Positions 15,636-62,324 of a stretch of DNA of 64,000 nucleotides are shown here, one piece after another. Both the position numbers and the translations under genes were made by a program. Source of the stretch: Hexactinellida sp. DTS-2022 (taxonomy: Eukaryota; Porifera; Hexactinellida). Within the stretch, counting starts at the first letter, position 1; each line of letters starts with the position of its first letter. The stretch covers positions 1,178,001-1,242,000 of the forward strand of contig JAPNXP010000016.1 of the NCBI GenBank assembly GCA_028753945.1. Reading direction: 5' to 3'. Below the pieces are notes generated by a model. That model was not told the DNA's origin and did no database searches. It saw only the letters and a program-made list of their open reading frames with translations.

Positions 15636-15742
15636 TTAAATAGAGGAAATTGAAACATTTTGATCATCTTGAATAGGATCTTCTAGTACTGCTTCAAGAA
15701 AAGAACTTCCGTGAATAAAATCACTATTCGAGATATCCGAAC
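15636..15742 (-). CDS. Cadherin-23-like, terminal coding exon
   Basis: The acceptor (ttttttag) lies directly above 15742. The first two bases complete a glycine codon left by the exon at 21164-21372. The frame then reads SDISNSDFIHGSSFLEAVLE and runs on to ...NVSISSI and TAA at 15636-15638. It is acidic and serine-rich, as expected of a cytoplasmic tail. The last residues, S-S-I, fit the class I PDZ-ligand pattern (S/T-x-hydrophobic-COOH). The downstream strand shows only a weak ATTAAA-type signal at about 15520-15525. The exon was too short for automated ORF calling and was found by phase matching. Confidence 0.85.
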
Positions 15743-21163: not shown

Positions 21164-21372
21164 CACTAATAAATTCCTCTTCAGGAATTTCTTCGAGAAA
21201 CAAATCCATTTTCAATTCTTGGGATTCATATGTAAACTCCTCCCTTATAGGGAATGGTCCAGGGATAGTTACATTTGTCCCATCTTGGAGTGTTGTTGTA
21301 AGGACGTCCAAACCTTCCATTCCACCATAAATATAATCTTCTGTTCGTTTTAAACTTCTTTTTCCAAGGATT
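21164..21372 (-). CDS. Cadherin-23-like, cytoplasmic-tail exon
   Basis: Acceptor (acattctactag) above 21372 and strong donor GTG|GTAAGTGC below 21164. The exon enters with one base completing an arginine codon (phase 2 from the transmembrane exon). It then reads ILGKRSLKRTEDYIYGGMEG... and a long acidic stretch ending ...EEEFIS, leaving the first base of a glycine codon. The basic start just after the membrane helix fits the cytoplasmic side (positive-inside rule). No catenin-binding motif is visible. Reading through the donor would give only eleven more residues before a stop, a less likely alternative. Confidence 0.87.
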
Positions 21373-23485: not shown

Positions 23486-23676
23486 CTCTGATAAAGTGCA
23501 AGAAAGTTAGTTAATAATCCACAAAACAAAATAACAACACAGACTGTGATAATGAGAAGAATCTGAATATTGGAAGATTGTTTATCGATAATTGGTTGAG
23601 TAATTTGGTTAACCAATGAAACTGTTTCCACTTTACCATCACATATGTCAGCAAGATCACCAAAGTTGTCGTCAAT
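23486..23676 (-). CDS. Cadherin-23-like, membrane-adjacent end plus transmembrane exon
   Basis: Acceptor TTTAG above 23676, donor CAG-AG|GTTTGT below 23486. It reads in phase 0 from IDDNFGDLADICDG. After a helical stretch (VSLVNQITQPIIDKQSS) it has an uninterrupted hydrophobic segment of about 23 residues (ILLIITVCVVILFCGLLTNF), the only membrane helix of the gene. The exon ends with two bases of an arginine codon. The segment before the helix completes the membrane-adjacent region begun in the two preceding exons. The exon was missed by ATG-based ORF calling. Confidence 0.88.
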
Positions 23677-24477
23677 CTAAAGTAGAGCGAGGAGATAAGT
23701 ATTTGGTAGTATTACATTCCTTAGACAAAAGACGAAAAATAGTGATATATCGTACAAGGATGGTAGAGATGCTGTTAACCGCCAATTTTGCTGATAATTG
23801 TAAACAGCATCTAATTTACTGTTAATAGCGTTGTTAACAGCTAACCTTTCCTCCTCAGAGCATTAAGTTTACATCCTTCCACATTTAAATCTTACCGTGT
23901 TGTACAAGCAGTTTTTAGCTAGTAAGAGCACGTGATTGTTATCAAGAGTTAGCGAACAGCTGATAACTATTCGATGCAAATTTGTTGTTAACAGCAAGCT
24001 AGCAACTCTTAACGGCATTTTTGATCTCGCTCGCGCACATCTTCTTTTACATCCAAGACATATTTATTTTAGCCGTTTTGTTTTGTGAGGGAAAAATTAT
24101 TCGTATTTATGCACGAATATGAAAGATCAAAAAATCCTGTAACAGCAAAATTTGATATTTGCTGTTAACAGCACCGAGCTGATTCTACCCCTGAATATAC
24201 ACTAACAGGCCAAAAGTATTTGAACAACAATAATTTGTATTCATGCATTCAAGCTTCTAGCAGGATAATACCATTAGTAGAAGCTTCAACATGGCTGTTT
24301 ACATAAAAGGATATATAAAGTATGTATAATAAAATAGCAATATTTTGAATATGTAAAACTCTAACTATATAATGAGCTAATTAAATATATAATTTCTGAT
24401 CATTATGAAGCAAATAAAATATACAAATTCTGATTTCAGATTTAACACTACATGGTCAAATTAGTATAGTGGTTTAA
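23677..24477. other. Cadherin intron with GCTGTTAACAGC palindromes
   Basis: Several copies of the palindrome core TGTTAACAGC, some imperfect, occur between 23770 and 24180. Others are near 61885 and 61990. They look like parts of a short inverted-repeat element whose borders I cannot fix. Nothing coding; the small ORF at 23616-23825 overlaps the exon antisense. Confidence 0.4.
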
Positions 24478-24925
24478 TCTATACTATTAAAAACACAAGG
24501 GTGGGTGTGTGTAAATGTGTATATGTTGTAGGCGAAATTGAGTACCAGGCGAGATTGAGTCTCAATTTCGCCTGAAACTCAATTTCGCCTGCGAGGGTCA
24601 GGCGAGATTGAGTACCAGGCGAAATGGAGTCATAATACTTATAGAAAATTTATAACTAAATATTATGGGTTGTTAAAAATTGATTATATCCCAGATCTAA
24701 TCCAGTTATTCGTTCACTTATCATACTAGGTAAACAAAGTATGCTGAATACGAATTTGACACTCACAAGTTTCTAATACAAATATTTATTGTTGTTATTG
24801 ACAATATAGGTAAACAAGTTTGTAAAATATTAGAATTTACATAGAGATTAGACGATTATTTTAAGTAATTGCATATGCTAAATACGAATTTAGAATTAAC
24901 TACTTGCAAATAAGGGCTGTTTGTT
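24478..24925 (+). mobile_element. Helitron-like 5' end, CAGGCGAAATTGAGT family
   Basis: Begins A|TCTATACTATTAAAAACAC, the TC start and host A typical of Helitrons. A GT-rich stretch follows, then an array of CAGGCGAAATTGAGT in both orientations (24530-24640), then sequence with AGTATGCTGAATACGAATTT. An inverted copy of the same block lies at about 28295-28740. The 3' end could not be located. The stretch 24926-26690 shows nothing I can name. Confidence 0.5.
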
Positions 24926-26689
24926 GTTAAAGTTGGGGAATTAATGACTAAGAATAAGATTGAGATTTTAAAATATAACTAAGTAAGCAAACTAGTATCA
25001 TATAGTTACGTATATAGATTAATATTGAAGACTTGACAAAAGGAATACGAATCCTTTTGTAAGTTAATTATATTGCGTTGTAAAGTGTAAATTATACATG
25101 ATAATTAATTAAGTGGAATAGTTAAGTATTCCCTAGCAAAAGCGAACGAGATTATACTGTAGGCTCGTATTGCCTCCTAATAAATATTTATCCTAATCTA
25201 CTCGCGAATTCAAACCATTTAACTCAAGCCACCAGTTTAATCTCCAATACATATAATTTTCAATACATTCACCATAAACAGAACATAATTAATCGCGACA
25301 CATTCTCAAATTAATGTTGAGTTTATTGATAAGCTGGTTGTGTTGTTAGTTGGTTTAATAGCTGGTTTTGCTGTTAAATCAGCTTATCAATATCACTCAG
25401 TTGAGAATGTATAGTGAGTAAATGAGTAATTACCTTCTAGTTATGTAGTAAATGTGTTTAAATGTGCATCTATAAATTAACAATACAAAGGCGTAGGCTC
25501 TGGTATGGTTGGTAGGGCCATGGACATACAAAAGTTTGCCAATTGAATCACCAATGTGCAATGGCCTCCCAATGTCACCGTAATGGACTAACCTATGGGC
25601 CCTACTAATCCCATTCTGAGACTACGTCAAACTCCGTATGTGGGAATTCTCCGAATCTAAGATGTTGACATTTTTCAGACTACTTTCTCAATATTGGAAA
25701 ATAGTCTAAAAATAACAATTGTTATAATATGCAACCAGAGATGAGGCCAAATCCCTATGGAAATTATAGTTTAAAAGATTTTAAGATTAATCCCAGTCCA
25801 TTCAGAATGGGATTGGGAATTAATCAGAAAATCTCAAACTCAAGGTCAGTGTGTGGGAATTAAGGAACTTCTAAATGATATTATTTCGAAACTGCTCTGA
25901 ATTGGTGAATGACAAATACGAATGTTAATCCAAGTTATTTAATTTAATTCTGCAATCTACACAAATTTGCATGTCTACAGGGTCTGAAAGTCATTTCGTT
26001 TCTCGTACCTTCAAACAAACAATAAATGTGTATTGTAATTATATGTAATATAAATTATATAATTGATAATAAAAATTATTTAGAAGCTTCATTACATTTT
26101 ACTTTCACTAAGTAATATAATCTTTGGACAGGTGCGAAGTCAGCCCTAACTATAGTGGGTGTCAAGTGCGTAGGAGTAAGTTATAGCCAGCGACCCTAAT
26201 GGGGGCTCAGCAGAAAACCTCTTACACACTAAGAGGCCTTGTTAAATGTTAATTCAGGAGCACTTTCTATAAAAAAGGTGCTATGTAACGACTGAAAAAG
26301 AAATAGCACAGTAACACATATTGACTGTGAAAGCTAACTAATATGATTACATTCTTGACTGAGCTTAGCTAAAAAGAGCACTAGCCTAGTACATTGATTA
26401 TCTTTCTTTTGGATACAAACAACTTGTGACCTTCATATGTTCTATATTTTGAACAGCGATTTTATTTATATTGAGCCAAAGTAAAATCCATGTTAATTTA
26501 AATATCAATTACTAAATAGCATTAATATATTTATTATACGTATTCTATTATTAGCCAATATATCATCTTTAAATAAAACACAAGATCTGAAAAGTACATA
26601 TATCAACAAAAATTGTGCTGAGTGAAAACATAAATAAATTACAACTGTTATTGAATACTCACATTGCGATACTTAATAAACAGTCGGAG

Positions 26690-26933
26690 AAATGCCAGCA
26701 TAAACATAGAGACAAAGTAGTCGGAAAATTCTAAACATTTGATATTTGGAATTTTTGACAAATGCCGACTTACGGAGCCGGACAAATGCAGGCCTCTAGT
26801 TAGTTTTTATCTCAAATAGAGATGCGTTTTTTATCTCCGAATTACTTTAATGTAATCCGGACAAACACATACCTACTCACACACACACACACTCACAAAG
26901 AACTATTGTGCTTTAGCGCTTTTAATATATAGA
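26690..26933 (-). mobile_element. Helitron-like 5' end on the minus strand
   Basis: On the minus strand the sequence starts TCTATATATTAAAAGCGCTA just after a host A, followed by a (GT)n stretch and TTTGTCCGGATTACATTAAAG. The start, GT-rich stretch and GTCCGGATT block recur at 40432 on the same strand. The 3' terminus is not identified. Confidence 0.5.
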
Positions 26934-27179
26934 TTATTGTGGTCTGCTTAAGCACTGCCGGATTTGGTAGCCCGCGAGACCATAGGCGGGCTAACAATAG
27001 TGCATTCTTAAGGATAAGGTTATCCACCAGTTGTAATTCTGGTAGTTCAATAATTGTTTTGCTATCTCGTAACCTATCTTATTCAAGAGGTTTTGATCCG
27101 GGGTCCCGGCTGTCTATTAACGGCCACCCCAAATAATATTATGAGGGACGAAACGATACCTACAGACTAGACTCAATTC

Positions 27180-27992
27180 ACAGGTCTAGACTAAATTCGG
27201 TTAGCCGGGTGACCGCTTAACAGCTGCTAATATTGGTTAACTGTTACAGATTTAATTGAGCAGTTAACCGCTCTGTTAATCTAGTTAAATAATATCAATG
27301 TAATTGCGTATATAAAACACTAATTTAAATTATATTAATTTTGTTAGAATATGGTAATCTTAAATATATGCAATTCCATATGTATGTAGTAAATTCCTAT
27401 AAACCAAGGGTGGGGTTGGTTAACCATTTTGAGGCCACGGTTACGATTATCTTCACACTACGGTTAACCGGCACTGAAAGTTATAACAAAATATATAGAC
27501 ATTTCTCAGAAAATATCTAAATTGTAGTAACGAAAAACACATTCTTTTAGCCAAGTACTCTATTAGTACAATTAACTGCGGTACAAGTTTATCACTTCAG
27601 GTTACTTCTACACTGTGTTGTCACCAAAATATATCTGTGACTATGGGTAATAAGTCTAAATAAGATAAACAATTATTATATTCTGAACAAAATGCGTGCA
27701 AATTCACACTGTTATCCAATAATTTGTACTTCTAATTGTAAATTGTAATATTAACATATCGGTTAACTGATCACTAAAATCCGTAACAGTTAACCGGTAT
27801 TAGCGGCGGTTAACCGAATTCAGCCTTGATTTAATATTTTCTGAAGGACGAAATGTAGCAGTAGTAAGGATACTAAGGAATAAAAACAAAGCTGAACCTT
27901 ACTAATTATGTAGTATAAATAATGTTCTACTGTGGTGATCAGCATGGGCGGTTGACTGGCTAACCGTGGCGAGAAATTGAATCGTAACCGTA
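27180..27992. repeat. Overlapping or nested CAAGG elements with GGTTAACCG repeats
   Basis: An inner copy at 27405-27828 begins CAAGGGTGGGGTTGG and ends GAATTCAGCCTTG. It is flanked by parts of a second copy (from about 27180 and up to 27992, ending with 'gcgagaaattgaatcgtaaccgtag'). Subterminal motifs GGTTAACCG are frequent. No target duplication is recognisable. Family members: 4102-4475 and 48590-49025. Confidence 0.5.
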
Positions 27993-28095
27993 GCCCCAGA
28001 ATTTACCATTGAATAAAATATTGAGAACAACAAGATACTCTCCCCTGACTTGAGGGTGGGGTCGACACCTCCCTCCTGACGCTATACAGTAAGTG

Positions 28096-28240
28096 CATAG
28101 GCGTCGTAAATGCAAAGGTCAATCCTTCGGGCAGCCAGGAAATTCCGGGGAAACTCCGGGGATAGTATTAGTAGCATAAGGGCAACCCTTCCGGGCCGCC
28201 CGGACATTTCCGGGCAGCCGGGCGAGTAACGACGCCTATT
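28096..28240. mobile_element. MITE with CATAGGCGTCGT ends
   Basis: Ends CATAGGCGTCGTAA and GTAACGACGCCTAT are inverted repeats. The interior is GC-rich, with repeated TTCCGGG. The flanking sequences AGTAAGTG and AGTAACTT match only in part. Same terminal class as 1189-1386 and 41994-42151. Confidence 0.6.
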
Positions 28241-28294
28241 AGTAACTTAGTAAGTGGCTTAGAAATTAGTATGTATCTCAAATACAAGTGTCAC

Positions 28295-28740
28295 TAAGTG
28301 TCTCTTTAACAACAAACAGCACTTATTTGCAAGTACATATGTAGTTAATTCTAGACATAAATTCGTATTTAGTATACTATGCAATTACTTAAAATAACCG
28401 CTAGTCTCTATGTTAATTTGGAATATTCCTTAATTTTTTTACCTATATTGTAAATAACAACAATAAATAGACATAATAGAAATTTGTGAGTGTCAAATTC
28501 GTATTCAGCATACTTGATTACCTAGTATTAACATTTGGAAGTGAACAAATAGCGGGATTAGATCTGGATATAATCAATTTATAACAACCCATAATATTTA
28601 GTTCAAAATTTTCTATAAGTAATATGACTCCATTTCGCCTGGTACTCAATCTCGCCTGACCCTCGCAGGCGAAATTGAGTTTCAGGCGAAATTGAGACTC
28701 AATCTCGCCTGGTACTCAATTTCGCCTGCGACATATATAT
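28295..28740 (-). repeat. Inverted copy of the CAGGCGAAATTGAGT block
   Basis: The reverse complement of this segment follows 24530-24925 closely: array of CAGGCGARATTGAGT in both orientations, then ACTAAATATTATGGGTTGTT, then AGTATGCTGAATACGAATTT. Its outer end is cut at an (AT)n run that leads into the TA-MITE at 28744. The two copies point at each other across 3.4 kb. Confidence 0.6.
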
Positions 28741-28743
28741 ATA

Positions 28744-28848
28744 TACAGTCAACATCCGGTAACTCGAATGCCCGTTAACTCGAACATTCGCTATCTCGAA
28801 CGGATTTTTCATTCCCCTGAGGGTTCGAGTTACCGGATGTTTACTATA
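28744..28848. mobile_element. TA-flanked MITE (CAGTCAACATCCGG ends)
   Basis: TA|CAGTCAACATCCGGTAACTC at the left and its near complement at the right. It is followed at once by the start of a second, truncated copy (TACAGTAAACATCCGGTAA, 28847-28865). The interior is a run of variants of AACTCGAA. Confidence 0.65.
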
Positions 28849-28864
28849 CAGTAAACATCCGGTA

Positions 28865-29350
28865 ATTATTAGGTAATGGCTCACTATCTCAAAAAATATT
28901 CATCGATAATACATTTTCTATGCCTAACTTCAATAATATTTGAGATAGTGAGATAATTAACACTTAATTCATTATTAGGTAATGGCTCACTATCTCAAAC
29001 ACATTTTAGGAAATATACATTTTCCATGGCAACCGAGTAATGTGTCAACATTCCATTTACAAATTCGATATATTTTATTCTACTACTTCTGGGTATAACT
29101 ATGTTCCAGTTTTGAACATTTATAATGCGTTTAACTATGTTAAAAGTATGCTAGAAAAACAAGATAATTCGAAACCAAAATTACCATAACGTCATCAGAT
29201 GATGACATATCGCAATTCTGGAGGGTGCTATGTATACCTGGATACCATATTCTTATATAGTTATAATACACTTTTCAGCTCTATCATTGCTAATTATTGG
29301 AATAAAGATCAATTCTCCATTTTTGAATGCACTTTAAGTAATCCATGGTA
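28865..29350. repeat. Dispersed repeat, mate of 46455-47010
   Basis: Contains inverted motifs ATTAGGTAATGGCTCACTAT and 'gagatagtgagataattaac'. These are followed by about 270 bp (acattttaggaaatatacat ... taagtaatccatgg) that are highly similar to 46668-47010. The ORFs at 29199-29459 and 46862-47113 both start inside this repeat and share their first 50 or so residues. That reflects duplication of the repeat, not a gene family I can name. Confidence 0.65.
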
Positions 29351-29744
29351 CACAAATTTTCGCTTAGCACTCCGGCCTTGTAATCGAAGGTCACGTAGTA
29401 ATGTATATTTAGCTGAACAATTTATTAATAATATGTTCATCAATATCGTTCCTAGTTAAGAGGATATTGCGAATTTAGTGTAAGGATGACGTAATAGAAT
29501 AAAAATATGGAATTGACCATATTTGGGTGTGACTACGCCTTTTTGCCAAAATTAGGGCGGGGAGGAGTTTTTGAACCATTAAATTGTCATTTTTGATTCA
29601 GCGCCCAAAGATTGTGTAGGAAACCAAATTTAGTGACTAAAAATACAGAATTGACCATATTTTCAGTCATACAATGTTCAGCCTATGCATTTTTGACTGT
29701 GGTTTGGCTTTGTCGCGTCCGGTAATATAGTAGTCCGTGATTTA

Positions 29745-29965
29745 ATATATATGTTTCTGGTATATATATATATATAAATCATGGCCCTATATCTCCAGAT
29801 TTAGGGACATATTTATGAAAAATACTCCATAAAAACACACTTTTATGGAGAATTTCCTTATAGGGAATCGAGCTTTTTTTTACCTAAATTGTGTTGAAAA
29901 AAAAGCAAACTTTTAAAATATGTCCCTATATCTGGAGATAAAGGGACATGCTTTGTATATATATA
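29745..29965. repeat. Inverted-repeat element ending in (AT)n runs
   Basis: ATATCTCCAGATTTAGGGACA near 29790 is matched inverted by TGTCCCTATATCTGGAGATA near 29920, with (TA)n runs outside both. A short MITE inserted in, or bounded by, TA repeats is likely. Superfamily not determined. Confidence 0.5.
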
Positions 29966-29967
29966 TA

Positions 29968-30361
29968 TACAGTCAACTCCCGTTATAACCAAGTCGGATA
30001 TAACGAAGTCATCCAATGGTCCGGAAATCCTTTTATCTTATTACATTAATAAAACTTCTGTTACAACGAAATGGATATAACGAAATTCCGCATATAACGA
30101 AGTCATTTAAATCCCATATAGCCTCTAAGCTTTTGAATTTACTCAGGTTATAACGTACTCCGGTTATAACGAATTCTGCTTATAACGAACTCCGGTTATA
30201 ACGAAATCCGTTTATAATAAACTCCGGTTACAACGAAATTAAACTTATAATGAACTCTTTATAGATCGAACTCCGTACCGAACTGTGGTTATAACAAACT
30301 CCGCTTATAACGAAATGAAACTAAGGTCCCGAGCACTTCATTATAACAGGAGTTGACTGTA
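29968..30361. mobile_element. Pogo-like MITE made of GTTATAACGAA units
   Basis: TA|CAGTCAACTCCCGTTATAAC ... complement|TA. The whole 394-bp interior is variants of CCGGTTATAACGAA, so the element is essentially an array of its own terminal motif. The sister copy is at 61398-61748. Confidence 0.8.
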
Positions 30362-30734
30362 TGACACATTTACAATTTGAACTTGTAACCATAAATATAT
30401 TGGAAACTTTGCAAGTTTCATTTAAGGTATTAAATATAAGTGATATAATTTCATAATTATTGTCTCTATTGCCTATTGGTGTGAAGCTCTAATAAATTTT
30501 GTGATATGTGGAACAATGTTTGCAATCAAAGAATAACCATTATTACACAGTGAAATAATATGAAGTGATAAATCCATCAGAGCCTAAAAGAACGAGCCCC
30601 GGGATGTAAAATATATATTAAACAATATAAGAAATGCGCCATCAGTTAATGTTGTGCGCCGGTTGTGCGCTCCCAGTTCAAAAACTCTAGCTACGCCCCT
30701 GCTTCTAGCGCAATTCTACACTCTTCAATAACAA

Positions 30735-32780
30735 CATCATGAGCGAACCTTACGAACCCGGGTCTCAAATTTCCTCCTACTCCGGGGCGAAGATTCAAAA
30801 GATGGAGACTCCTACAACGACCTTATCTCGTTGTCACAGCCTTATACGCACCCGCTTGCTACCCCGGCAGCAAGTCCTAGGTCTGCCAGGCTATTGGACA
30901 GGTCAGCCCTGGTTGACTCCTTCATGCCCAGAACTGACGTAGCGGGTCAGCCCGCCTCTGTAACGTCAGATGCACACTTGCCTGACCAGCAAAGGGCATT
31001 AGTGCCCCCGAGCACATCATTGACAGGCCCAGTGCCTACCACGAATAAAGTCTGCCCCAGGGTAGCAAGCTAATGCGCTTAGCACATTGCAAGCACTACT
31101 AAGCGAGACCCTGTATCACCTACGGTCCTGCTCTACCCCTCAGAGCGCTATCCAGGAAGTCCCTGCGGAGATTGGTGCGATGTCTATGGCACCCCAGACC
31201 TCCCACGATCCTGACAAACATAACTCTTCGACCCATCAAACTTAGTAGAACGAAAGTTCTTCACCGGGTCTTCTGAAGAAATATGCTCCTATCTGAGCAA
31301 ACTACTTTATCAATGGCCTTGAGCCCGAACAAAGGCTGGAAATGGTCAAACGATACAAACGTCAGATATCCCTTCCATAAGGGTACAAAAGCTGGACAAT
31401 CTCTTCTAGCGTCAGACCTCAATGCGGTCTAAGCGAGAGACGAAACCTAAAGGACATACAACGTGCTATATTGTTCTAAGTCGGCCCACTATCTGAGCTA
31501 CTGGGGAAGCTTACAACTGGCGAGTCGGTCCAGCCGGCACAAGTCATAGAGCACGTCTCTACCTCCCCTATCCTAATCGGAACGGTGGTGGCATCCACAG
31601 TTCGCACGCGCAGAAAACAGGGTCTCAGCCTGCAGTGAACGGTCAAAGATCATTTAATTGATATAGTTCATTATAATCTCAAATCAATCATACATAGCAA
31701 GGGACGCTCAATCAGATCAATCATTTGACTTCTGCAAATCGATCAACTCAAATCAATTTATACTAAACTCATTTTCAGATCAAAACTCAATTTCAGATCA
31801 AAAACTCAATTTCAGATCAAAACTCAATTTCAGATCAAAAACTCAATTTCAGATCAAAACTCATTTTCAGTTCAAAACTCAATTTCAGATCAAAAACTAA
31901 TTTTCAGATTATTTCAAATTGCTAGCAGATCAATCAACTCAATCATTTTAATATTCACAAATTCAATCAAATCAATTCAAAAAGTGATTTATTATTCAGA
32001 TCATAAAGATTTAACTTCAAAGAAGAGCCAGGAGCATAAATTACTCTCTAGCAAGCGAGTTGACACTGTAGTTACCGACCCAGACCCCACCTTCTTGTTT
32101 GGGGCTAACGCGCTCAAAAGACTCAGAGAAGTGAATAATGAGCAACTCCAAATTACAAGCTGTCCAAGTCACCGAACCAGAAACGGGCCAAAGCTCGGGC
32201 TATGATAAGCATCCTAAGCAGCATAGGCCAGTTTTTTCGGAAAAGATCCCACTGGAGCAGCGGGCTCCAGTGGGACGAGCCAGCCTAACCGCTCAGCTCA
32301 ATATCCCAAACAAGGCCAATACACAAGCAAATACAAGAAGCGACTGAAAGGGAACTGGATGGCCAAGATAGATCTCAAGGACGCCTATCTTACAGTAGGA
32401 GTGCCATAGAAATCCCGGAGGTTTCTCCAATTCCTCTGGAAGGGTATGATTTACCAATACAAAGCAATGCCAATCGGGTAAATAGCCCCGTACGTGTTGA
32501 CCAATTTGCTGAAAAACCTCTCTCCTTGCTCAGATCCCACGGGATCAAGATCATTATAAATCTGGACGATATGCTCCTAACAGTGGGCAGCAGGAAACTC
32601 CTAATGGATCAGGTCATGGCCTACTTAATATACGGCTATATATGTCGCCGAGAAGGCCATAAAACAAAGAGGCCAGTTTCTAATTTTCATTCTAGGATAA
32701 ACTATGCCTCCTATTGTTATTATTTGGGTTGTATATGGGATAATCAACCATTGCGAGTCCAATGGAGCCACTTTTGAGAA
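30735..32780 (+). pseudogene. Decayed DIRS-type retrotransposon (gag and reverse transcriptase pieces)
   Basis: A GC-richer island with broken frames. Gag-like pieces occur at 30739-31640 and 32040-32345 (for example PDPTFLFGANALKRL). A reverse-transcriptase part occurs at 32350-32780 and includes WMAKIDLKDAYLTVGVP, SRRFLQFLWKG, IYQYKAMPIG and, in another frame, IKIIINLDDMLL. DLKDAY..., 'FLWKG' and the L-D-D core are characteristic of DIRS/Ngaro reverse transcriptases. Stops and frameshifts are frequent, and no tyrosine recombinase part was found. An ATCAAAT-rich element (31633-32000) has inserted into it. It lies in the 15.6-kb cadherin intron. Confidence 0.7.
31633..32000. repeat. ATCAAAT-rich element inside the DIRS remnant
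   Basis: Starts CAGTGAACGGTCAAAGATC, the inverted counterpart of the right end of 10793-11249. It contains seven or so tandem units of TTCAGATCAAAACTCAAT (31765-31905). The right border is not certain. Confidence 0.5.
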
Positions 32781-32984
32781 TCTCAGATTGTGGTTAAGCT
32801 GTTTATGCGCTATTTAATGATGACGCGTGACCTACGTTATAACAAGGCCTGTTCATTAGTGATAAATTTTGGACCATGGATGTCGGTTAAGTCCATTGAT
32901 TCTTTTTACAATAAATGCTATAGTTAGAGATAATTAACCAAGTAGTAATATTTGTGTTTCATTGATTACAACAAATCATCCAGA

Positions 32985-34443
32985 GTCCCAGGGGTTTATC
33001 TAGGTGCCTGGCAGGCGCATTAGGTGCCGGCCAGGCATCAGTTGAGCTGAAAAGGTGCGTGAATTGCGATTCAATTTAGGTGCCGGGTTGGCACTTAATT
33101 AGGTGCCGGGTGTATGGCCAGATTTTCTGGTCCAGAAATGCGTGGATAAACAACTGTTTGTGCACCGTAGCAATTTACCTCCTTAAAATAGGAGGTAAAT
33201 TGCCGCATCATTGAATTATACTGATTATTTATTATGGCTAATACCTTTATGGTGCCGAAAAATTTATACCTCCATAATAAAGTGCCAGCCACGAAAATCC
33301 TAGAAAAACTCCTGATCCAGACTAAACCTAAGCGACTGCAAACACCATTTTTGATGATGCTATTCAATTCGCAGCTATCTTTAACCTATATATCAGTATA
33401 GTCGTCCAGCGGCATAGCCATAAAATTTTAACAGATTGTTCATTTTTGTTGATAAAACACCAAAATTTGTACAAATGTACTTTGATGTAGTGCGAACATT
33501 TTTTGATATTGAGACAATTGAAGAGTGTCTATATCGGCCATAACAGCTCGTCAAAGTAACCACGCCCGATAGTGTTCGCCGGACTTGTCTCCACTAAAAA
33601 ATTGTTCAAATTAAGTTATTCCGTCTTTTTAGTGTGCTTCTTCTAGTAAAAAACGTTATATGTAGGGTCCTACTATAGTTATATACTATAAGTGCACACT
33701 ATTGAATTTACCTCTGTCGGACTTCCGGCCGGCCGGCCGTACGCGATGGCCTGACTAGACCATTGGTGATAGAGATTTAACATTTGGACAGTAGATATAG
33801 AATTTCCTGAAGATGATCACCTCGAAGCCCGAATTCTCAATTTCGCTTTTGTTCATCAGTTATATCGAAATTTGTATTCTGATCCAGTGACTCTTTAATA
33901 ATTCGAATTATCAATTGAAATTATAGAGGTTGTATTCTCCTAAGGATGTTCTTTCTATTTATCAATTAAAATGAATAGGTCGCTAACCAACTCTAGGTTT
34001 TATTAACGATTATTTACATAAATCAGCCATCTTCTCTATATTGTAATTACTCTCTAGTATACTGAATACTATAGAACATAGTATTACATAAGCCTACTAT
34101 CTGCTAGATAATGACTGTTATTAATTGGTTTGTGAGTGAATATGTGTTTCATACAAGTGCAATGAAAACACTAGGAAGTTGAACATTTACAAGTTGTTGA
34201 TGATGTCAAATAATGAATTCTATTATTCAAATAGTAACGTAATTACTACACGTATTCCTAATTCTATTTGTAATAATTAATCTTTAATTAATTTAAACAT
34301 TTGAAGTCTTCACAATTCAAACATTAATTAAATTATATTACACTAAAATGAAATGTAATTTGAATATTGAAATTCTAGTTAAATTAAACATTGGGGAAGT
34401 GCAATCAGAAGGAGCACACTCCCATCCCGTCTGTGAGGGTTTT
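32985..34443. other. Cadherin intron: short GC-rich repeat, then nothing recognised
   Basis: 32985-33120 holds a possible MITE beginning CAGGGGTTTATCTAGGTGCC with several TAGGTGCCGG units. A similar start is at 60738. From 33121 to 34443 there is no recognisable gene or element. A GC-rich patch with GGCCGGCCGGCC is at 33730. The ORF at 33095-33367 has no coding character. Confidence 0.35.
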
Positions 34444-34723
34444 TACTGTGCCGACTATACTATAGTATAGTGGCCCAGTATTGGAATCACTGCCTTTATT
34501 ATTATTTTTATTATTTTATTTTTACTGTGCCGACTATACTATAGTATAGTGGCCCAGTATTGGAATCACTGCCTTTATTACTGTGCCGACTATACTATAG
34601 TATAGTGGCCCAGTATTGGAATCACTGCCTTTATTTATATTATTATTATTATTATTACTGTGCCGACTATACTATAGTATAGTGGCCCAGTATTAGAATC
34701 ACTGCCTTTATTTATATTATTAT
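34444..34723. repeat. Four tandem copies of a unit with palindrome ACTATACTATAGTATAGT
   Basis: The unit runs TACTGTGCCGACTATACTAT, continues through the palindrome, then TGGCCCAGTATTGGAATCAC and TGCCTTTATT. Copies are separated by ATT runs of different length. Single copies of the palindrome with CTGTGCC/GGGCA flanks also lie at 49335-49370 and 52285-52315, each beside a member of the hairpin family. The unit therefore seems to be a terminal part of that family. Confidence 0.75.
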
Positions 34724-34727
34724 TATT

Positions 34728-37700
34728 TCTCCGTAGCAGGTGCCCTGGCCACACCTGTATACATAGAGGGCTGAAACTTGGCATGTAGATTCGGAGTCGA
34801 CGTCTAATTTGCACCTGGGGTTACGATTTTGTATTAACAAATTTTTGACACATCTTTAACACCTTTCAAAATTTGTCTGGTCCATAACTCAAAAAATGTT
34901 TTACTAAACCCCAAAATTTTATTTCACATTTGGATTCGCCATAAAATTCTGCGTCTGATGGGAGAAGAAAACTTTCAATAAAGAGTTCTATTTCTGCCAT
35001 AAATGGGGGTTGAAATTTCTTTGTTTACTCACACTTCAGTTTCAGTATAACTGTTAAATCAAATTCCATTGTTTCAACTTGTAATAATTATATTGATTTA
35101 ACTTGTTAAATCTTACTCTATTGATTCAACTTGCGATAATTAAATTGATTTAACTTATAAATTCCAGCTGGCTTCTATTTAATTTTAGTATTACTATACA
35201 ATTGATTAAATTAAATAATATAATATAAGGAATTTGTTGACTCAACTCAACCAACCATGGATAACATTGCTAAAATAAATAACTAATAATATAATTTATT
35301 ATCAATACATAATGAATGAATGGCATTAAACTAAAGATGGTTTATGATAGAACCGTTAAGATTTTACATTCCACAACAACGACAGATTAAGTGATTATAT
35401 TTATTTCGGCGAGAATATTCTTGCACAATTAATGTACTGACATATTTAATTCTAATTAATTCGCTCTGTGTTTACCGTATAGAGATGGTTCAAAATAGAT
35501 TATTGGGGTTATCGAGTGCGTGGAATTCAAATATTATAGTGAAATTCAATTTAAATTAATAATAATTGCAAATAATTGAACTTAATTTATTTTGCTGTAT
35601 ATAATAATGGTGTTAAATAATTAATAAATTAATTAAATATTTATACTAATTAGCTAAATTTCATTAATCTCAGAGATGATACAAGATAGAAACAAACTTT
35701 CAATTTATCAATTGGTCCTTATGCCAGGTACCACCTATACAAGTGGGTCTTGACACCTTGAGGTGATTATGACATCGTCAAAAAAATGTACTTTTACAAT
35801 TTTTTTAATTCGATATTTAAAATGGGTTAGTTGATGTTGGGTGATGACCCAACACACACATAAAAAATGCTGAGTCATCAGCTATTATATTCTACTCAAA
35901 CTTGAATATCTCTAAAATTATATGAACTAAATGGAAACTTCCACCACTCTAAGGGTCGATGCCTTCTGTAACACCTTTTTGAAATAATTTAACACCTTCA
36001 TAGTGATGATGACATGGCGAAAAAAAATCCAAAATTGCAGCCTGCGCCGACAGAATGTTCTTTTGGAGGCACTATAAATAAACAACCAACAAAATGTAGT
36101 GCCACCAAAGGAACATGTGTCGGCACAGGCTGCAATTTTGGATTTTTATTTTTTTTTCTCCGTAGACGGTGCCCTGGCCTGAGCTTTATAGTTGATGGGC
36201 TGAAACTTGGCATGTAGGTGCGTATGGACCGTCTAATTTGCACCTGGGGTTACGATTTTTTATTAACAAATTTTTGACACATCTTTAACACCTTTCAAAA
36301 TTTGTCTGGTCCATAACTCAAAATATGTTTTACTAAACCCGCAAATTTTATTTCACATTTGGATTCACCATAAAATTCTGCGTCTGATGGGAGAGGAATA
36401 TTTACAAAAATATGTTTAATTTCTGCCATAAATGGGGTTTGAAATTTCTTTGTTTACTCACACTTCAATTTCAGTAAAAGTGTTAAATCTAATTCTATTG
36501 TTTCAACTTGTAATAATTATATTGATTTAACTTGTTAAATCTTACTCTATTGTTTCAACTTGAGATAAATATATTGATTCAACTTATAAATTCCAGCTGG
36601 CTTCTATTTAATTTACCATACAATGGATTAAATTAAATAATATAATATAAGGAATTTGTTGACTTAATTCAACTCAACCATGGATAACAATGCTAATATA
36701 AATAACTAATAATATAATTTATTATCAATACATAATGAATGAGTGGCATTAAACTCAAGATGGTTCAAGATAGAAACAAACTTAACATTTATCTACCGTT
36801 CCTTGTGACTCTGACCAATTAACAAATGCTTCTTCACACCTTGGGCGTTGATGACTTGGCGAAAAAAAATCCAAAATTGCAGCCTGCGCCGACAGCATGT
36901 TCCTTTGGAGGCACTATCAATAAACAACCAACAAAATATAGTGCCACCAAAGGAACATGCGTCGGCACAGGGTGCAATTTTGGATTTTTTTTTATTATTA
37001 TTTTTATTTTTTCTCCGTAGACGGTGCCCCTGCCACACCTTTATACATTGAGGGCTTAAATTTGGCATGTAGATGCGGAGTGCCCTTCTAATTTGCACCT
37101 GGGGTTACGATTTTTGATTAACAAATCTTTGACACATCTTTAACACCTTTCAAAATTTGTCTGGTCCATAACACAAAATATGTTTTACTAAACCCCCAAA
37201 TTTTATTTCACATTTGGATTCACCATAAAATTCTGCGTCTGATGGGAGAAGAAAACTTTCAACAAAGAGTTTTATTTCTGCCATAAATGGGGGTTGAAAT
37301 TTCTTTGTTTACTCACACTTCAATTTCAGTAAAAGTGTTAAATCTAATTCCATTGTTTCAACTTGCGATAATTATATTGATTAAACTTGTTAAATCTTTC
37401 ACTATTGATTCAACTTGAGATAATTAAATTGATTTAACTTATAAATTGCAGCTGGCTTCTATTTAATTTACCATACAATGGATTAAATAAAATAATATAA
37501 TATAAGGAATTTGTTGACTTAATTCAACTCAACCGTGGATAACAATGCTAATATAAATAACTAATAATATAATTTATTATCAATACATAATGAATGAATG
37601 GCATTAAACTCAAGATGGTTTAAGATAGAAACAAACTTCAAATTTATCTACCGTTCCTTGTGACTCGGACCAATTAACAAATGCTTCTTCACACCTTGGG

Positions 37701-38690
37701 CGTTGATGACTTGGCGAAAAAAAATCCAAAATTGCAGCCTGTGTCGACAGCATGTTCCAATGGAGGCACTATCAATAGACCACCACCAAAATATAGTGTC
37801 ACCAAAGGAACATGCGTCGGCACAGCTGCAATTTGGGATTTTTTTTTTCTCCGTAGACGGTGCCCTGGCCAGAGCTTAATTGTTGATGGGCTGAAACTTG
37901 GCATGTAGGTGCGATGGGACCGTCTAATTTGCACCTGGGGTTACGATTTTTCGTTAACAAATTTTTGACACATCTTTGACACCTTTAAAAATTTGTCTGG
38001 TCCATAACTCAAAAAATGTTTTACTAAACCCCCAAATTTTATTTCACATTTGGATTCGCCATAAAATTCTGCGTCTGATGGGAGAAGAAATCTTTCAATA
38101 AAGGGGTCAATTTCTGCCATAAATGGGGCTTGAAATTTCTTTGTTTACTCACACTTCAATTTCAGTAAAGTGTTAAATCTAATTCTATTGTTTCAACTTG
38201 TAATAATTATATTGATTTAACTTGTTAAATCCTACTCTAGTGATTCAACTTGCGATAATTATATTGATTTAACTTATAAATTCCAGCTGGCTTCTATTTA
38301 ATTCTAGTATTACTATACAATTGATTAAATAAAATAATATAATATAAGGAATTTGTTGACTCAACTCAACCAACCATGGATAATATTGCTAAAATAAATA
38401 ACTAATAATATAACTTATTATCAATACATAATGAAAGAATGGCATTAAACTCAAGATGGTTTATGATAGAAACTAACTTTAAATTTATCTACCGTTCCTT
38501 GTGACTCCGACCAATTAACAAATGGTTCTTCACACCTTGGGCGTTGATGACTTAGCGAAAAAAATCAAAAATTGCAGCCTGCGCCGACAGCATGTTCCTT
38601 TGGAGGCACTATCAATAAACAACCAACAAAATATAGTGCCACCAAAGGAACATGCGTCGGCACAGGCTGCAATTTTTGATTTTTTTTTAT
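34728..38690. repeat. Tandem array of about 0.85-kb units, each with a long hairpin
   Basis: Units begin TCTCCGTAG at 34728, 36157, 37012 and 37848. Spacings are 1429, 855 and 836 bp, and the last unit is about 842 bp. Each unit ends in a hairpin of about 120 bp, with arms AAAATTGCAGCCTGCGCCGA... and the complement, at about 36023-36147, 36865-36990, 37721-37842 and 38561-38680. Sequence between units is highly similar. The first unit carries an extra 0.6 kb that is also present in the relatives at 43960-44340 and 47840-48200. The ORFs at 35998-38713 are readings of the hairpin. Confidence 0.85.
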
Positions 38691-38754
38691 TGTTGAATTC
38701 GGTTTCGAAGTAAAATTTCCGATAATTTGATAAAGTGGAAATAGATTTTACTAG

Positions 38755-39025
38755 CAGAGATGGAACCGGTCGGGATTTTCATGACCCGACCCGACCGGTG
38801 CAGTTGGAAATTTTACCCGACCCGACCGGCCGGTCGACCGGTCAATCATAGCTAGCAATAATTTATTAATAATAGAAAACAAACTATGATATTATGATAT
38901 CGAATAGATCATATAGAGATCTCGACCGGCCGGTCTGGGTTCGACCGGTCGGTCAAGGTTCCGACCGGTACCCGACCCGAACCGACCCGACCGGTGCCGG
39001 TCAGACCCGACTGGTTCCGTCTCTG
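38755..39025. mobile_element. MITE rich in CCGGTCGG motifs
   Basis: Ends CAGAGATGGAACCGGTCGGG and CCCGACTGGTTCCGTCTCTG. Both terminal thirds are dense in CCCGACCCGACCGG and GGCCGGTCGACCGG, and the middle is AT-rich. The flanks TTTACTAG and GATTTTAG match only partly. hAT-like by its CAG...CTG ends. Confidence 0.65.
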
Positions 39026-39262
39026 GATTTTAGACTATTCAGTTTGGTATGAACTGGCAATAAACTTTTAGTTTTGCGGCATGTACATGGCATGAACTTT
39101 TAAAGGTGTGTGGCATGAACTGTGCGTACATCATCTGGCACCACTGCTAGTAGAAACCATACAAATATAGTTGCACTTATGAACGGTATATAGCATGTTA
39201 TCTAAAATATTTACATATTAAATAATAATTAATACGTACTTGAATAAGAAAATATAATTTAC

Positions 39263-39397
39263 CTTTCGGATTAAAACAGATTGAGTAACAAGAGTTAAAG
39301 TATCTCCAGAAGATTGAAATGCGTAAATAAAAAGATCAGTCTGAAGCGGAAAAACAGTCAGTCCCACCATGCGCTCTCGAATATCAAATATATGTAT
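39263..39397 (-). CDS. Cadherin-23-like, membrane-adjacent exon
   Basis: Acceptor (atcaattttag) above 39397, donor AAG|GTAAAT below 39263. It is exactly 45 codons, phase 0 at both ends. It begins IHIFDIRERMVGLTVFPLQT, continues DLFIYAFQSSGDTLTLV..., and ends VLIRK. Alternating strands and helices with no EC signature (no LDRE, no DxNDN) agree with the membrane-adjacent domain that follows the last EC repeat in CDH23 and PCDH15. The intron on its lower side is 15.6 kb. Confidence 0.82.
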
Positions 39398-39539
39398 CTA
39401 AAATTGATAAAATGAAAGAATAGAATATGTAGTAATATCGAACAAAAATTGTTAATTTCAATCTACAAAGTAGTAATGTTGTCATAATACCAACATGCTG
39501 TATGCAAATTACCAACATATACAATCAATATATAGCTGA

Positions 39540-39980
39540 CAATCTGCAGACACTTGCAGGGGGCGCTACGGGACGCTACGGGGCGCAAGGAGGGGCGCAA
39601 GCCCCCTACAGGAACGCTCAAAAATAAGAGGTATCACGTTAAAATCGGCTGTTAGCAAGCTGGCAATTTAGTAGCAAAATATTTAAACAATAATATTCAC
39701 CGTTTTAAACTCAAAAATTATCACCTTTTCAATGATCAAAATACACATATACCAGGAATAAGAGAAAGGGGATAAATTATGCACAAAAATGATACGTACT
39801 ATCAAATTCATAAAATGTAGTTAATGTTTTCTAAATTAGATATTAAGGCAGATACTGACTTCCTTAAGACCTGAACCAATGATCCAGACACTTGACTTTG
39901 GCCGAGACATTCAAAGAAATTTCTATGTTTTATTTAATCATTTCAGATTTCATACATCATGGCAAAATTAATAATTACGA
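39540..39980. other. Cadherin intron with one GC-rich patch
   Basis: 39555-39625 holds GGGGGCGCTACGGG and related G-rich words that look like one end of a MITE of the CAGTGGCGGCGCTACGG class, but no partner end was found. The rest is AT-rich without recognisable content. Confidence 0.3.
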
Positions 39981-40432
39981 GCCCTTCGGTCTCGGTCGCT
40001 TTGCGACGGATCGGTGCTACGCACCTCAAGTTAACGGCCACTATGCGGCCTTACTCCTCACCCTTTCCACCAGGGAGGATATTATATACATCCCTTTATA
40101 CATTTTTGCATAGTTTCAATTTGTTCACCAATAATACTCGTTGAAAACAAACTTCTAGGTTGATTTTAATTTTTTCATTAATTTGTTTAACTATTTTTGT
40201 AAAGAACAACAACAACAAATATTCATATTATAAATTTATAAATGCGAAATTCGTGTTCAGCATACTTGTTTACCTATTATAACATTTGTTTACATATTAT
40301 AACATTTGGAAGTTAGTTTCTATCAAAATTATAAATGCGGTTTCTATTCCCCCATCACTTAATACAATCCGGACAAACACACACACACACACACACAAAC
40401 AAACACACAACAATCGAGATTTAATAATATAG
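39981..40432 (-). mobile_element. Helitron-like element, minus strand
   Basis: On the minus strand the 5' end is TCTATATTATTAAATCTCG, followed by a long (GT)n tract and TTTGTCCGGATTGTATTAAG. The interior shares AGTATGCTGAACACGAATT with 24478-24925. The GC-rich, hairpin-forming segment at 39981-40030 (cggtcgctttgcgacgg) would suit a Helitron 3' end, but a CTRR terminus is not clear. The interval 40433-41229 shows nothing recognisable. Confidence 0.45.
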
Positions 40433-41229
40433 ATAAGCACAAAATATCAAGTTTAACTTTTTTGTTCATAAAGTGTAAATTGCAAACACGATTGATGATC
40501 AAACATATACAAACAGAATTTCGCCACAATAAATATTAGAACGGTTTAACCTGACACTGGATACTTCTGGTGAAATAGTATTACTTAGAAGCACCATTTG
40601 AAAAGTCCATACGTAAGAAGGATTTAAACCCAAGTGATAAAATTATAGACCAAATTTTGCATGCTCGCTAAATTTATTCATATCATATCAACTTGTTTAA
40701 ACATATTGTATTTTCAATCACATTTCAGTACGGTTATTTGTTAACGTATCACATAGAGTTTTATATATGCAAAAAAAATAGTCGTGAATGAGTATTTTTT
40801 ACTAATAATAGAATAAACACTTGAAACTCAACTTTCTCCATACCTGGTCCAAAGGCCTTATAGTCTAATAGGTTATGATAATACATTAGTAAGATTGAAC
40901 TAAGTTAAATGTTTGGGTATGTATAGTATTTACTTTCAGTAAACCAAAGTAATATAAGCTATTGTATTTGTTTGGCTACTTAATAATCGAAAATTTCCAC
41001 TTAATTTGTTTCCTTTTGTGAAATATGGTAGAATCTTCTTCTTAATTCTCTTCTTGCCTACAGTGCATTTTTCAATTGTAAGTTGAAATTATCTACTAAT
41101 ATATTCTCTAACAGTCCATACCTAATGATAGAAATTTACTCGTCAAATTGTTTGATAGTGGTATTAATATTTAATAGTACATGAGCAATAGAAAAAAAGC
41201 TTGGGAATAGTACAACCTTCAGTATTTAC

Positions 41230-41509
41230 CTGAAATTCTGTAATTTCCTCTAATTTGGAAACGAGTAAGTTGGCACATAGTTGTGTCTTCTCCACACTTT
41301 GATCCAATACTATTTGAATAAGATATTGATTGTCAATAATACTAATTACAATAGTTACTGAAGAACTTCTTTTATTTGCCACTGCTTGATCTGAAGCGGT
41401 AGCACTAAAAGTAAGAATCTCACCAACTCTTCCAGAAAATATTACGTTTGTTTGTATTATGCCTGAAATCTCATTAATAATAAAGTCTGAAGTATCTGAT
41501 ATTGAATAC
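41230..41509 (-). CDS. Cadherin-23-like, last EC repeat and start of membrane-adjacent region
   Basis: Acceptor (atatcctag) above 41509, donor CAG|GTAAAT below 41230. One base completes a leucine codon from the previous exon (phase 2), followed by 93 codons. It starts YSISDTSDFIINEISGIIQT, the usual middle of an EC repeat. It continues to LTFSATASDQA and VTIVISIIDN, where the linker has lost the DxNDNxP form, as expected of the final repeat. The remaining residues (QYLIQIVLDQSVEKTQ...EITEFQ) begin the membrane-adjacent region. The donor matches the phase-0 start of the next exon. Confidence 0.87.
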
Positions 41510-55183: not shown

Positions 55184-55425
55184 AGGATTTTACCAAAAGT
55201 TGATAGATCATAATCTATTGCATCAATGAATCCTACTTCTGAATTGTATTGCACACTTTCCAAAATAGCAAAATTGAACGTTGAAGAGGAAAATATAGGA
55301 GTGTTGTCATTAATATCAAGTACTGTGATGTAAACAATGGCATTATGGTAAAGTCTGCACTGATTAGACTCAAATCTGGCTCTAGTTAAGTCAAGAGGAT
55401 TACAAAATGAACCAACACCTATCGC
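55184..55425 (-). CDS. Cadherin-23-like, EC repeat junction exon
   Basis: Acceptor (cttttttcttttag) above 55425, donor CT|GTGAGT below 55184. It reads in phase 0 from AIGVGSFCNPLDLTRARFES through CRLYHNAIVYITVLDINDNTP, the calcium-binding linker of the second-last EC repeat. It continues into the last EC repeat (IFSSSTFNFAILESVQYN...) and ends phase 2. The stretch with two cysteines before the linker replaces the usual loop of an EC repeat. Joining across the donor gives FGKIL|YSISDTSD, a normal EC core. Confidence 0.88.
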
Positions 55426-55757: not shown

Positions 55758-58700
55758 ATTATTTATGACTTCAACATTAAGTGTATAGTTATCTCTGATT
55801 TCACGGTCGAGGCCAATGTTAACATACAATTCACCATTATCAGTAACACTAAATTCAGGAAATGAATAAGGTGAATCTGTTGCCAATCTAAATGTTGATC
55901 GCTGAAAATTAGTATCTGAATCGCCGTCAGTAAAATATAATGTAACTAAGAGTCTCGAAAAACCATTTTGACTAGAAGGATCCAAATCCTCTGGATATGA
56001 TATATAATATACAGAATTGTTGAAGGTAGGAGGAATATCATTTTCATCTAACAACACAATAGATATCATAGATGTACTGGACAGGCTAGGATTACCCTCG
56101 TCATTAACTACTGCCTTGGCAGTATACCTATCCTGTGTTTCTCTATCTAAGATTCCATTAACCTCTAGTATACCATTCGAGTTAACACGAAAAGAACGAT
56201 CAAATTCAGCAGAATTCTCTGAAGCACTAGAAAATGAGATACGCCCATTTCCTAAATTAGGGTCATCGTTATCGCTAGCTTCTAGGATAAGAACTTGGAA
56301 TCCTAATTGTGATAATTCTGATATATTCATAGAATAAAGAGGACGAGTAAAATATGGAATTTCATCATTAACATCGGTGATAGTAATTAGTATTTCAGCG
56401 CTGCCCTCTAGCAAAATATTAGCATTGGGATTTATGGCTTTGACAACAAGTGTTTGTAAACTAGAAACTTCACGATCAAAACTAGATATAGTAAGAATTT
56501 CACCAGTGACAGAATTAATAGAAAAATCATCCATAAATAAAGTGGGAATGCTAAAAGAAATTACTGAATTAACAGTATTTTGAACGTCAGCATCGGATGC
56601 AGTTACAGTTAATAGAGATGTTCCAGAAGGTGAATTTTCAGGCAGATTTACATAGTAAGTAGAGTGTCCAAAAAGTGGAGCGAATTCATTTACGTCAATA
56701 ATACCAATAACAAGAGTTTCAATGCCCATGAGAGGAGGAATCGCGCTATCGGATGCTTGGATTAATATTTCGTAACGAATTATTCTCTCAGAGCTCAAGG
56801 AATTGTTCACATGTAAGGTTCCAGTATCAGGATTGATGAGAAAATCACCATAGTGACCTCCAAGAATAGAAAAAATTATTCTAGAATTTGTTCCCTCATC
56901 TATATCAGTAGCATCAACATTAAATGCAATCACACCAACGTTCGTATCCTCCTTTATTTGAGTTGTAAACTGAGTGATATCAATTATTGGAGAGTTATCA
57001 TTCACATCTAATATTGTAATATTAACAGTAGCACTTGCCGACATTGACGGTATACCTGCATCTTTTGCAATGATCTCTAACTGATAGAAATCTATGATTT
57101 CGCGATCAAGTATTCCGTTAACAATAATTTCTCCAGTAATTTGTTCTACGCTAAATATAATATTACCAGACATTTTCATAAAAACAATGTCACCATTTGT
57201 ACTTGAATCTAAGTCTGTAGCAATAACTCTTCCAATAGTAAAGTTCGCAGTTCTATCTTCTAACACAGTGAAGATGTAAACCGACTGACTAAAGATTGGC
57301 GCATGATCGTTAGTATCTGTTATGGTTATTGTTACACCTACATTGCTGCACAATATTGTTTCTCCTTTATCACATGCTTCTACAACAAGATTGTAAGATG
57401 ACTGTGTTTCTCTATCCAAATTTGTAACATTTACGAAAATATGGCCAGTATTAGCATCAATAGCAAAGTGGAATGCATTCAATCCCGAAATAAACTTATA
57501 AACTAGTTCGGCATTGGTTGTAGCGTCATCATCAGTAGCAGAAACATCTATTACAAAAGAAGACATTGGAAGATTTTCCGGAATAGACATTTCATAAGGT
57601 GGCATGAAAAGTGGAGCATGATCATTAATATCAATTATGGAAATAAATATGTTCGAAAGAACAGATTTAGGAGATAAGCCTTCATCACTGGCTTTAATTT
57701 CCAAGGTAAATGACGCTTGATTATTAAAGTTTAAAGAAGCAATTGTAGTGATTTGTCCAGTTTCTGGTTCAATCCGAAACACATTATCATTATTTCCATT
57801 AGTTATTTCATAATTAATATCAGCATTTTGCGAAATATCGGTATCATTGGCAACAACCCTGAATACGTTGGTTCCACCAAATGTACTTTCAAGCAGATCA
57901 ATAGAAACAGGCAAATTAATGAAATCAGGAATTCCGTCATTTTCGTCGGTAATTGTAATAGAAGCAATGATAGGCAAACTTTGAAGCGGAGGAATGCCCT
58001 TGTCGGTAATTGATAACACGAGAATATAATTGTCGTCTTTTTCTCGGTCGAGTACAGCAGTAAAAACTACTATATATGCAGTTGATGCCCCTGTGTTCTG
58101 CATGATTGCGAATGCACTTTCATCATTCCCAGAATCTATAATAAAAGAAAATTCTCCATTAATTCCTGTATCCTTATCTGAACCACATATCTGTCCAACT
58201 GTTGAACCAACAGGGGAGTTTTCTAATATAGAATACTCATAATCAGCAGTCTGACAGAAAGAAGGGGGATTATCATTCGTGTCAGAAATCTCTATATGGA
58301 GAGATGTTAAACTCGATTTGCTGTTGTCGCCTGATTCATAAGCTCGAACAGTTAGCTCAAATATTTTGTTAATGAGGTTAAAAAGTTGCAACACATTGGA
58401 AACAATTCCCGTATCTTCATCTATTGAAAATAAAGCCTCGAGATTACCACCGACAATATCATATTTGATAGTACCACTAGTATCACTGTCCGTAGCAATA
58501 AGAGTAATAATAATAGTGCCCACAGTTGTATTCTCAGGAACAGAAGTGGTATATAAAGAAGAATCAAAAACAGGTACATTATCGTTTTCGTCCAAAACAG
58601 TAATAATAACATCAACACTTCCTGTTAATGGAACAGAACCTCTGTCAGTCGCCACAAGGTTAAGTTGATACAAATCAAAACCGTTAGGTCCACTCGAATC

Positions 58701-62090: not shown

Positions 62091-62324
62091 CAAAGTAACA
62101 GTTGCTCCTGCAGGTGAATTTTCAGAAATAATACCGCTATATTGAATTGGAGAGAAATTTGGAGCATTATCATTGACATCAAGAATTGAAACGAGTACTA
62201 CAGATGTACCCTGTCGAGTTGGAATACCATGATCCTGCGCAGCCAAAATGAGTTCATAACTTGATTGCAATTCACGATCAATATTAGCTTTAGCAACTTG
62301 TACTTGGGCACTGGCCGAGTTGAT
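62091..62324 (-). CDS. Cadherin-23-like, most upstream exon seen
   Basis: Acceptor (ttctaacttattag) above 62324, donor TTG|GTATGC below 62091. It is 78 codons, phase 0 at both ends. It starts INSASAQVQVAKANIDRELQ, the second half of an EC repeat. It passes YELILAAQDHGIP and the linker DVNDNAP, and ends within the next repeat (SENSPAGATVTL), which the 4-kb exon continues (NTPIAISDVDQGVN). The preceding exon is not within 62325-64000 as far as I can see, so the amino terminus is outside the window. Confidence 0.92.

What the first reader, a model, noticed from the sequence alone, without database searches (positions are those of the whole stretch)
23486..41509. Cadherin with a CDH23/PCDH15-type membrane-adjacent region, found only after exon assembly
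Seen: the exons at 41230, 39263 and 23486 join in phase. They give about 120 residues between the last EC repeat and the membrane with no EC, EGF or laminin-G features. Known: CDH23 and PCDH15 have a membrane-adjacent domain in exactly this place, and most large cadherins (Fat, Dachsous, CELSR) do not. Inference: this is a CDH23/PCDH15-related gene, possibly relevant to the origin of tip-link-type cadherins.
Basis: partly seen in the sequence, partly recalled or inferred. Interest (0 to 1): 0.7.

Follow-up and report, generated by a model that had tools for sequence, protein, structure and literature searches.

The report
Giant cadherin with tip-link-type membrane domain
The window holds the membrane end of a very long cell-adhesion protein that carries, just outside the membrane, the same kind of domain as the two proteins of the hearing tip link, in an unnamed early-branching animal (probably a sponge), which bears on where such link proteins came from.

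The parts
62091..62324 (-). coding exon (EC repeats), upstream of the large exon
   Evidence: collinear with a paralogue exon; GT-AG and phase fit, sites chosen jointly in both genes
55758..59786 (-). large exon, about 12 EC repeats
   Evidence: 1352-aa open frame, 12 Pfam Cadherin stretches, E 7.8e-195; 60% identical to the paralogue
55184..55425 (-). exon D: end of EC35, first half of the last EC repeat (EC36)
   Evidence: Pfam Cadherin over the joined D+A region E 4.3e-05, below the curated cut-off (24.3 of 28.8 bits)
41230..41509 (-). exon A: second half of EC36 and first part of the membrane-adjacent domain (MAD begins about 41331)
39263..39397 (-). exon B: middle of the MAD
23486..23676 (-). 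exon C: end of the MAD (to about 23641), linker, transmembrane-like helix (about 23491-23571, by eye)
21164..21372 (-). exon E: cytoplasmic tail with motif YESQELKMDLF; the motif class is in all nine tails examined
   Evidence: 61.5% identical to the paralogue, E 6.9e-27; splice check; motif count
15636..15742 (-). exon F: last coding exon with stop; C-terminal PDZ ligand ISSI at 15639-15650
   Evidence: found by pattern and likeness to the paralogue's end; splice and frame check

Best explanation
[quoted passage not shown] It is one of a tandem pair, within a family of at least six MAD cadherins in this genome. Most likely mechanism: the 36 EC repeats form a Ca2+-stiffened filament (36 x 4.5 nm, about 160 nm) reaching another membrane; the last EC and the MAD pair two chains into a collar at the membrane, as in PCDH15; the tail docks on a PDZ scaffold (harmonin type) and so on actin. 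It would thus be a long lateral link between microvilli or apical membranes. Shown: gene anatomy by sequence and paralogue, homology of the MAD, purifying selection, conserved tail motif and C-terminus. Inferred: the fold of the window MAD itself, dimer collar, scaffold binding, site of action, mechanical role, and that the animal is a sponge.
Against: The window MAD itself was not folded (it exists only after splicing). Its direct similarity to CDH23/PCDH15 is not significant (HMM E 6.4; hhalign 0.14), and the two paralogues alone hit nothing in the PDB at E 10 or less. In one search the weakest PCDH15 entry (0.031) is level with an unrelated lectin (0.034). The cousin models rest on three-row alignments; the five models of each run had mean pLDDT 65 down to 37 and 59 down to 37, and AlphaFold was trained on PDB structures that may include PCDH15 (recalled). 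Two PCDH15 cryo-EM rows score no better than Nup54. Pfam ECD (PF18432, recalled to be the PCDH15 linker model) does not match the genome (controls silent). MADs also occur in CELSR1 and PCDH24. The two paralogues lack the NP[LM][WY]..PY tail block that the seven other tails have. No expression, localisation or binding data.
Confidence: 0.65

Rival explanations
1. A Fat/Dachsous-like giant cadherin for cell-cell adhesion or planar polarity that happens to carry a MAD; the MAD is an old, general membrane-proximal cap and says nothing about microvillar links.
Against: No EGF or laminin-G match between ECs and membrane. The MAD profile lists CDH23 and PCDH15 but not CELSR1 among its nine PDB hits at E 10 or less, and the best fold scores are higher for CDH23/PCDH15. 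PDZ-ligand terminus in 9 of 9 tails. MADs of Fat and Dachsous, if any, were not tested.
Confidence: 0.22
2. A true orthologue of CDH23 (or of CDHR2/PCDH24) whose EC array has expanded.
For: CDH23 MAD is the best PDB sequence hit and best fold hit of the C18 cousin. The cousin tails carry NP[LM][WY]..PY, which I recall from CDH23 but could not test; PDZ-ligand end.
Confidence: 0.1
3. The membrane-proximal stretch is an unrelated ferredoxin/SEA-like stalk that converged on the same fold.
Against: Sequence-profile homology through the cousins, same place between last EC and membrane, and the top five structural rows of both cousins are CDH23 or PCDH15.
Confidence: 0.03

Closest known systems
Cadherin-23 (EC1-27, MAD28)
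   Same: long EC array, MAD before a single transmembrane helix; best PDB sequence hit of the family profile and best fold hit of the C18 cousin; PDZ-ligand C-terminus (recalled for CDH23)
   Different: 36 instead of 27 EC repeats; the window tail lacks the NP[LM][WY]..PY block present in the cousins; tip EC1-2 not specifically similar
Protocadherin-15 (EC1-11, MAD12/EL)
   Same: same MAD place; best fold hits of the C1 cousin
   Different: 36 instead of 11 EC repeats; LHFPL5/TMC partnership unknown here, although TMC and LHFPL family matches are in the genome
Protocadherin-24/CDHR2 (EC1-9, MAD10), intermicrovillar link
   Same: MAD before the membrane (PMC8691648 passages)
   Different: 9 EC repeats; MAD10 sequence not available here, so not compared
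CELSR1 (EC1-9, predicted MAD, then further domains to GAIN)
   Different: in CELSR1 the MAD is followed by further extracellular domains and seven helices (recalled); here by one helix

Membership tests
MAD-bearing non-classical cadherins (CDH23/PCDH15/CDHR2 group) | long tandem array of EC repeats | tested here: met
   36 EC repeats in each of the two paralogues by a home-made EC profile; 12 Pfam Cadherin stretches in the large exon
MAD-bearing non-classical cadherins (CDH23/PCDH15/CDHR2 group) | MAD homologous in sequence to CDH23/PCDH15 MAD | tested here: met
   six-sequence profile to CDH23 E 3.8e-10, PCDH15 0.006; hold-out E 1.4e-7. Only through the cousins: direct test E 6.4
MAD-bearing non-classical cadherins (CDH23/PCDH15/CDHR2 group) | ferredoxin-like fold of the MAD | tested here: inconclusive
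   predicted for two single-exon cousins, not for the spliced window domain itself
MAD-bearing non-classical cadherins (CDH23/PCDH15/CDHR2 group) | MAD followed by one transmembrane helix, no EGF/LamG | tested here: met
   114 residues then one hydrophobic stretch, judged by eye; no EGF or LamG match in Pfam
MAD-bearing non-classical cadherins (CDH23/PCDH15/CDHR2 group) | tail ending in a PDZ ligand | tested here: met
   S-x-I at the C-terminus in 9 of 9 tails; binding not tested
Cadherin-23 orthologue | 27 EC repeats (EC1-MAD28 in PMC8691648 passage) | tested here: not met
   36
Cadherin-23 orthologue | EC1-2 tip of CDH23 type | tested here: inconclusive
   EC1-2 profile hits many cadherins (164 sequences at E 0.001 or less, 60 shown), CDH23 not preferred
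Protocadherin-15 orthologue | 11 EC repeats | tested here: not met
   36; 11 from PMC6092121 passage
Protocadherin-15 orthologue | assembly with LHFPL5/TMC | not testable with these tools
   matches to both families are in the genome; association needs experiment
Classical cadherin | catenin-binding cytoplasmic domain (Pfam Cadherin_C) | tested here: not met
   no Cadherin_C match at E 10 or less in either full tail

The most novel reading that the evidence does not exclude
If the animal is a sponge, this family is the missing set of intermicrovillar-link cadherins of collar cells: MAD-plus-PDZ-ligand link cadherins, together with TMC and LHFPL proteins in the same genome, existed before nerves and hair cells, and the tip-link kind of cadherin arose from collar-microvillus links.
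Probability: 0.3. Interest if true: 0.85.

Novelty: new member of a known kind. Interest (0 to 1): 0.58.

Why it matters
Pena et al. 2016 (PMC4942974; abstract and passages) found no obvious sponge orthologues of the cadherins that link microvilli in gut and ear, and could only point to at least four unassigned choanocyte-enriched cadherins. A sequence-defined family with the CDH23/PCDH15 membrane-adjacent domain and PDZ-ligand tails gives concrete genes to test for that role, if this animal is indeed a sponge. It also shows how such domains hide: in the window gene the MAD is split over three exons across about 18 kb, it gives no Pfam hit, and it was only recognisable through its cousins.

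Tried and rejected
Single-sequence searches of the joined region: Pfam nothing in the MAD, PDB phmmer only weak EC matches, two-sequence profile nothing, C1 cousin alone only calcium homeostasis modulator noise. Pfam ECD in the genome: no match, controls silent. CDH23+PCDH15-only HMM against the window gene: not significant. EC1-2 tip profile: generic. C18 tail against the PDB: no meaningful hit. The tblastn inside one search returned nothing, apparently because of an option it does not take; rerun.

Organism: I considered Xenoturbella bocki (111 Mbp, 18 scaffolds) and rejected it: 43% GC and an 8.76-Mb largest scaffold (PMC11521371 passages) against 33-35% GC across this window and a 17.6-Mb contig C1. 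No Hox-like homeodomain (three matches, best 46% identity to an Antp-type homeodomain), no innexin and no Wnt match fit a sponge, and the missing Wnt fits a glass sponge (PMC10280926 abstract and passages). For innexin and Wnt nothing rang in the control genomes either, and the search is exon by exon, so these absences are weak. TMIE: no match. Rows not used: C3:156557 (MAD-like, E 0.006) and members whose MAD was not fetched (C6:730595, C1:10447103) were left out of the MAD profile; C4:256450 (E 1.2) was taken as chance.

Literature: in the listings of searches over an open-licence library, and in the passages I opened, I saw no report of a MAD in a sponge cadherin; De-la-Torre 2018 and Nichols 2012 are not held. 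An Oscarella study mentions a 'Cadherin 23-like' gene in passing (PMC8380372 passage). Of PMC3899209 (CDH23 in sea anemone hair bundles) I saw only abstract and outline.

Full report
What was checked. The window is C8:1178001-1242000 of an unnamed 112.4-Mb genome in 18 contigs. They encode the second half of an EC repeat, 114 residues, and a transmembrane-like helix.

The gene around it. A search of the genome with the joined residues found the window exons and, on the same contig, a second set of the same exons. Comparing the open frames of the two regions gave 34 collinear exon pairs. Splice sites were chosen jointly for both genes, with equal phases required, and gave two proteins without a stop, 4,118 and 4,115 residues before the last exon. 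The last exon of the window gene is 15636-15742, ending ...DDQNVSISSI-stop; with it and the start codon the model has 4,154 residues. A methionine and a signal-peptide-like start (MRV...SSQDNRPPIF in the window gene; MRV...FSQDNIPPIF in the paralogue; judged by eye) lie at C8:1350091 and C8:1397974. Each protein has 36 EC repeats by a profile trained on these proteins, with no gap over 26 residues apart from the signal peptide; Pfam independently finds 12 in the large exon. The window gene spans about 156 kb, so the window shows its C-terminal part only.

Why the domain was hidden. In the paralogue the introns D-A, A-B and B-C are 262, 341 and 482 bp; in the window gene they are 13,674, 1,832 and 15,586 bp, with many tandem repeats. 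Exons A, B and C are 280, 135 and 191 nt in both genes, so a missing exon between them is unlikely. Codon differences at positions 1/2/3 are 77/56/126 over 201 codons.

What the 114 residues are. Neither the joined protein nor the pair of paralogues finds a known domain there alone. The paralogue, however, hit weakly (E 1.1) a cadherin on contig C1 at the stretch between its last EC and its membrane helix. That cadherin led to relatives on C18, C14 and C6 with the same layout in one exon. A profile of these six sequences (A3) searched against 177,635 PDB sequences gave nine hits at E 10 or less: mouse cadherin-23 EC25-MAD28 first (E 3.8e-10, 102 residues), then five protocadherin-15 sequences (E 0.006-0.031, the MAD12/EL domain), then three unrelated ones (0.034, 0.11, 1.5). 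CELSR1 was not among the nine.

Tail. The window gene, its paralogue and the seven other tails examined share YE[ST][QK]E[LF]x[MI][DE][LM]F and end in S-x-I, 9 of 9; NP[LM][WY]xxPY is in 7 of 9, missing in the window pair. Four of the nine (C14, two on C6, one on C1) are near-identical copies and are not independent. A class-I PDZ ligand at the very C-terminus is the way CDH23-type cadherins are held by harmonin (recalled); binding was not tested.

Mechanism. Committed reading: a filament of about 160 nm (36 repeats, 4.5 nm each after PMC8691648 passage) that reaches from one membrane to another, paired at its base by EC36 and the MAD, and tied to actin through a PDZ scaffold. Shown are the parts; the pairing, scaffold and place are inferred from CDH23, PCDH15 and PCDH24. 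The main rival is a Fat-like adhesion or polarity role; MADs are not limited to link cadherins (PMC7857726 passage).

Organism and context. No Hox-like homeodomain, innexin, Wnt or TMIE match was found, but TMC and LHFPL family matches are present (three and two places). A sponge, perhaps a glass sponge, fits best; this is an inference from weak absences. In sponges the link cadherins of collar microvilli are unidentified as of PMC4942974 (abstract and passages), which is why the family is of interest.

Verdict. Observation confirmed. The CDH23/PCDH15-type domain is confirmed by homology; its supposed exclusiveness is wrong; orthology to either tip-link cadherin is not supported by the EC number; function is open. 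New member of a known kind.

Noticed in passing
C8:1350091 to C8:1350792 (outside the window): The window gene's start codon lies about 700 bp beyond the stop codon of its tandem paralogue; the two 36-EC genes are head to tail.
   Followed up: partly
window 17561-17956 and 18308-18922, + strand: Two open frames inside the last intron of the cadherin gene, on the opposite strand; transposase-like by eye only, no Pfam or NCBIfam match.
   Followed up: partly
window 32289-32777, + strand: Open frame in the 15.6-kb intron, retroelement-like by eye only, no Pfam or NCBIfam match.
   Followed up: partly
L042, L043, L044, L046 (C14:405402, C6:4498811, C6:730595, C1:10447103): Four near-identical MAD-cadherin tails on three contigs; next to three of them (L043, L044, L046) lies a similar open frame that looks NHL-repeat-like by eye (the matching strand of L042 was not looked at), so a whole segment seems to have been copied recently.
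   Followed up: partly
C7:3362037, C1:4044721, C17:52349 (TMC); C10:749756, C18:6202307 (LHFPL): Matches over the Pfam cut-off to two families of the hair-cell mechanotransduction complex in the same genome.
   Followed up: no
window 31765-31909, 45625-46116, 49976-50117: Tandem repeat arrays in the introns.
   Followed up: no
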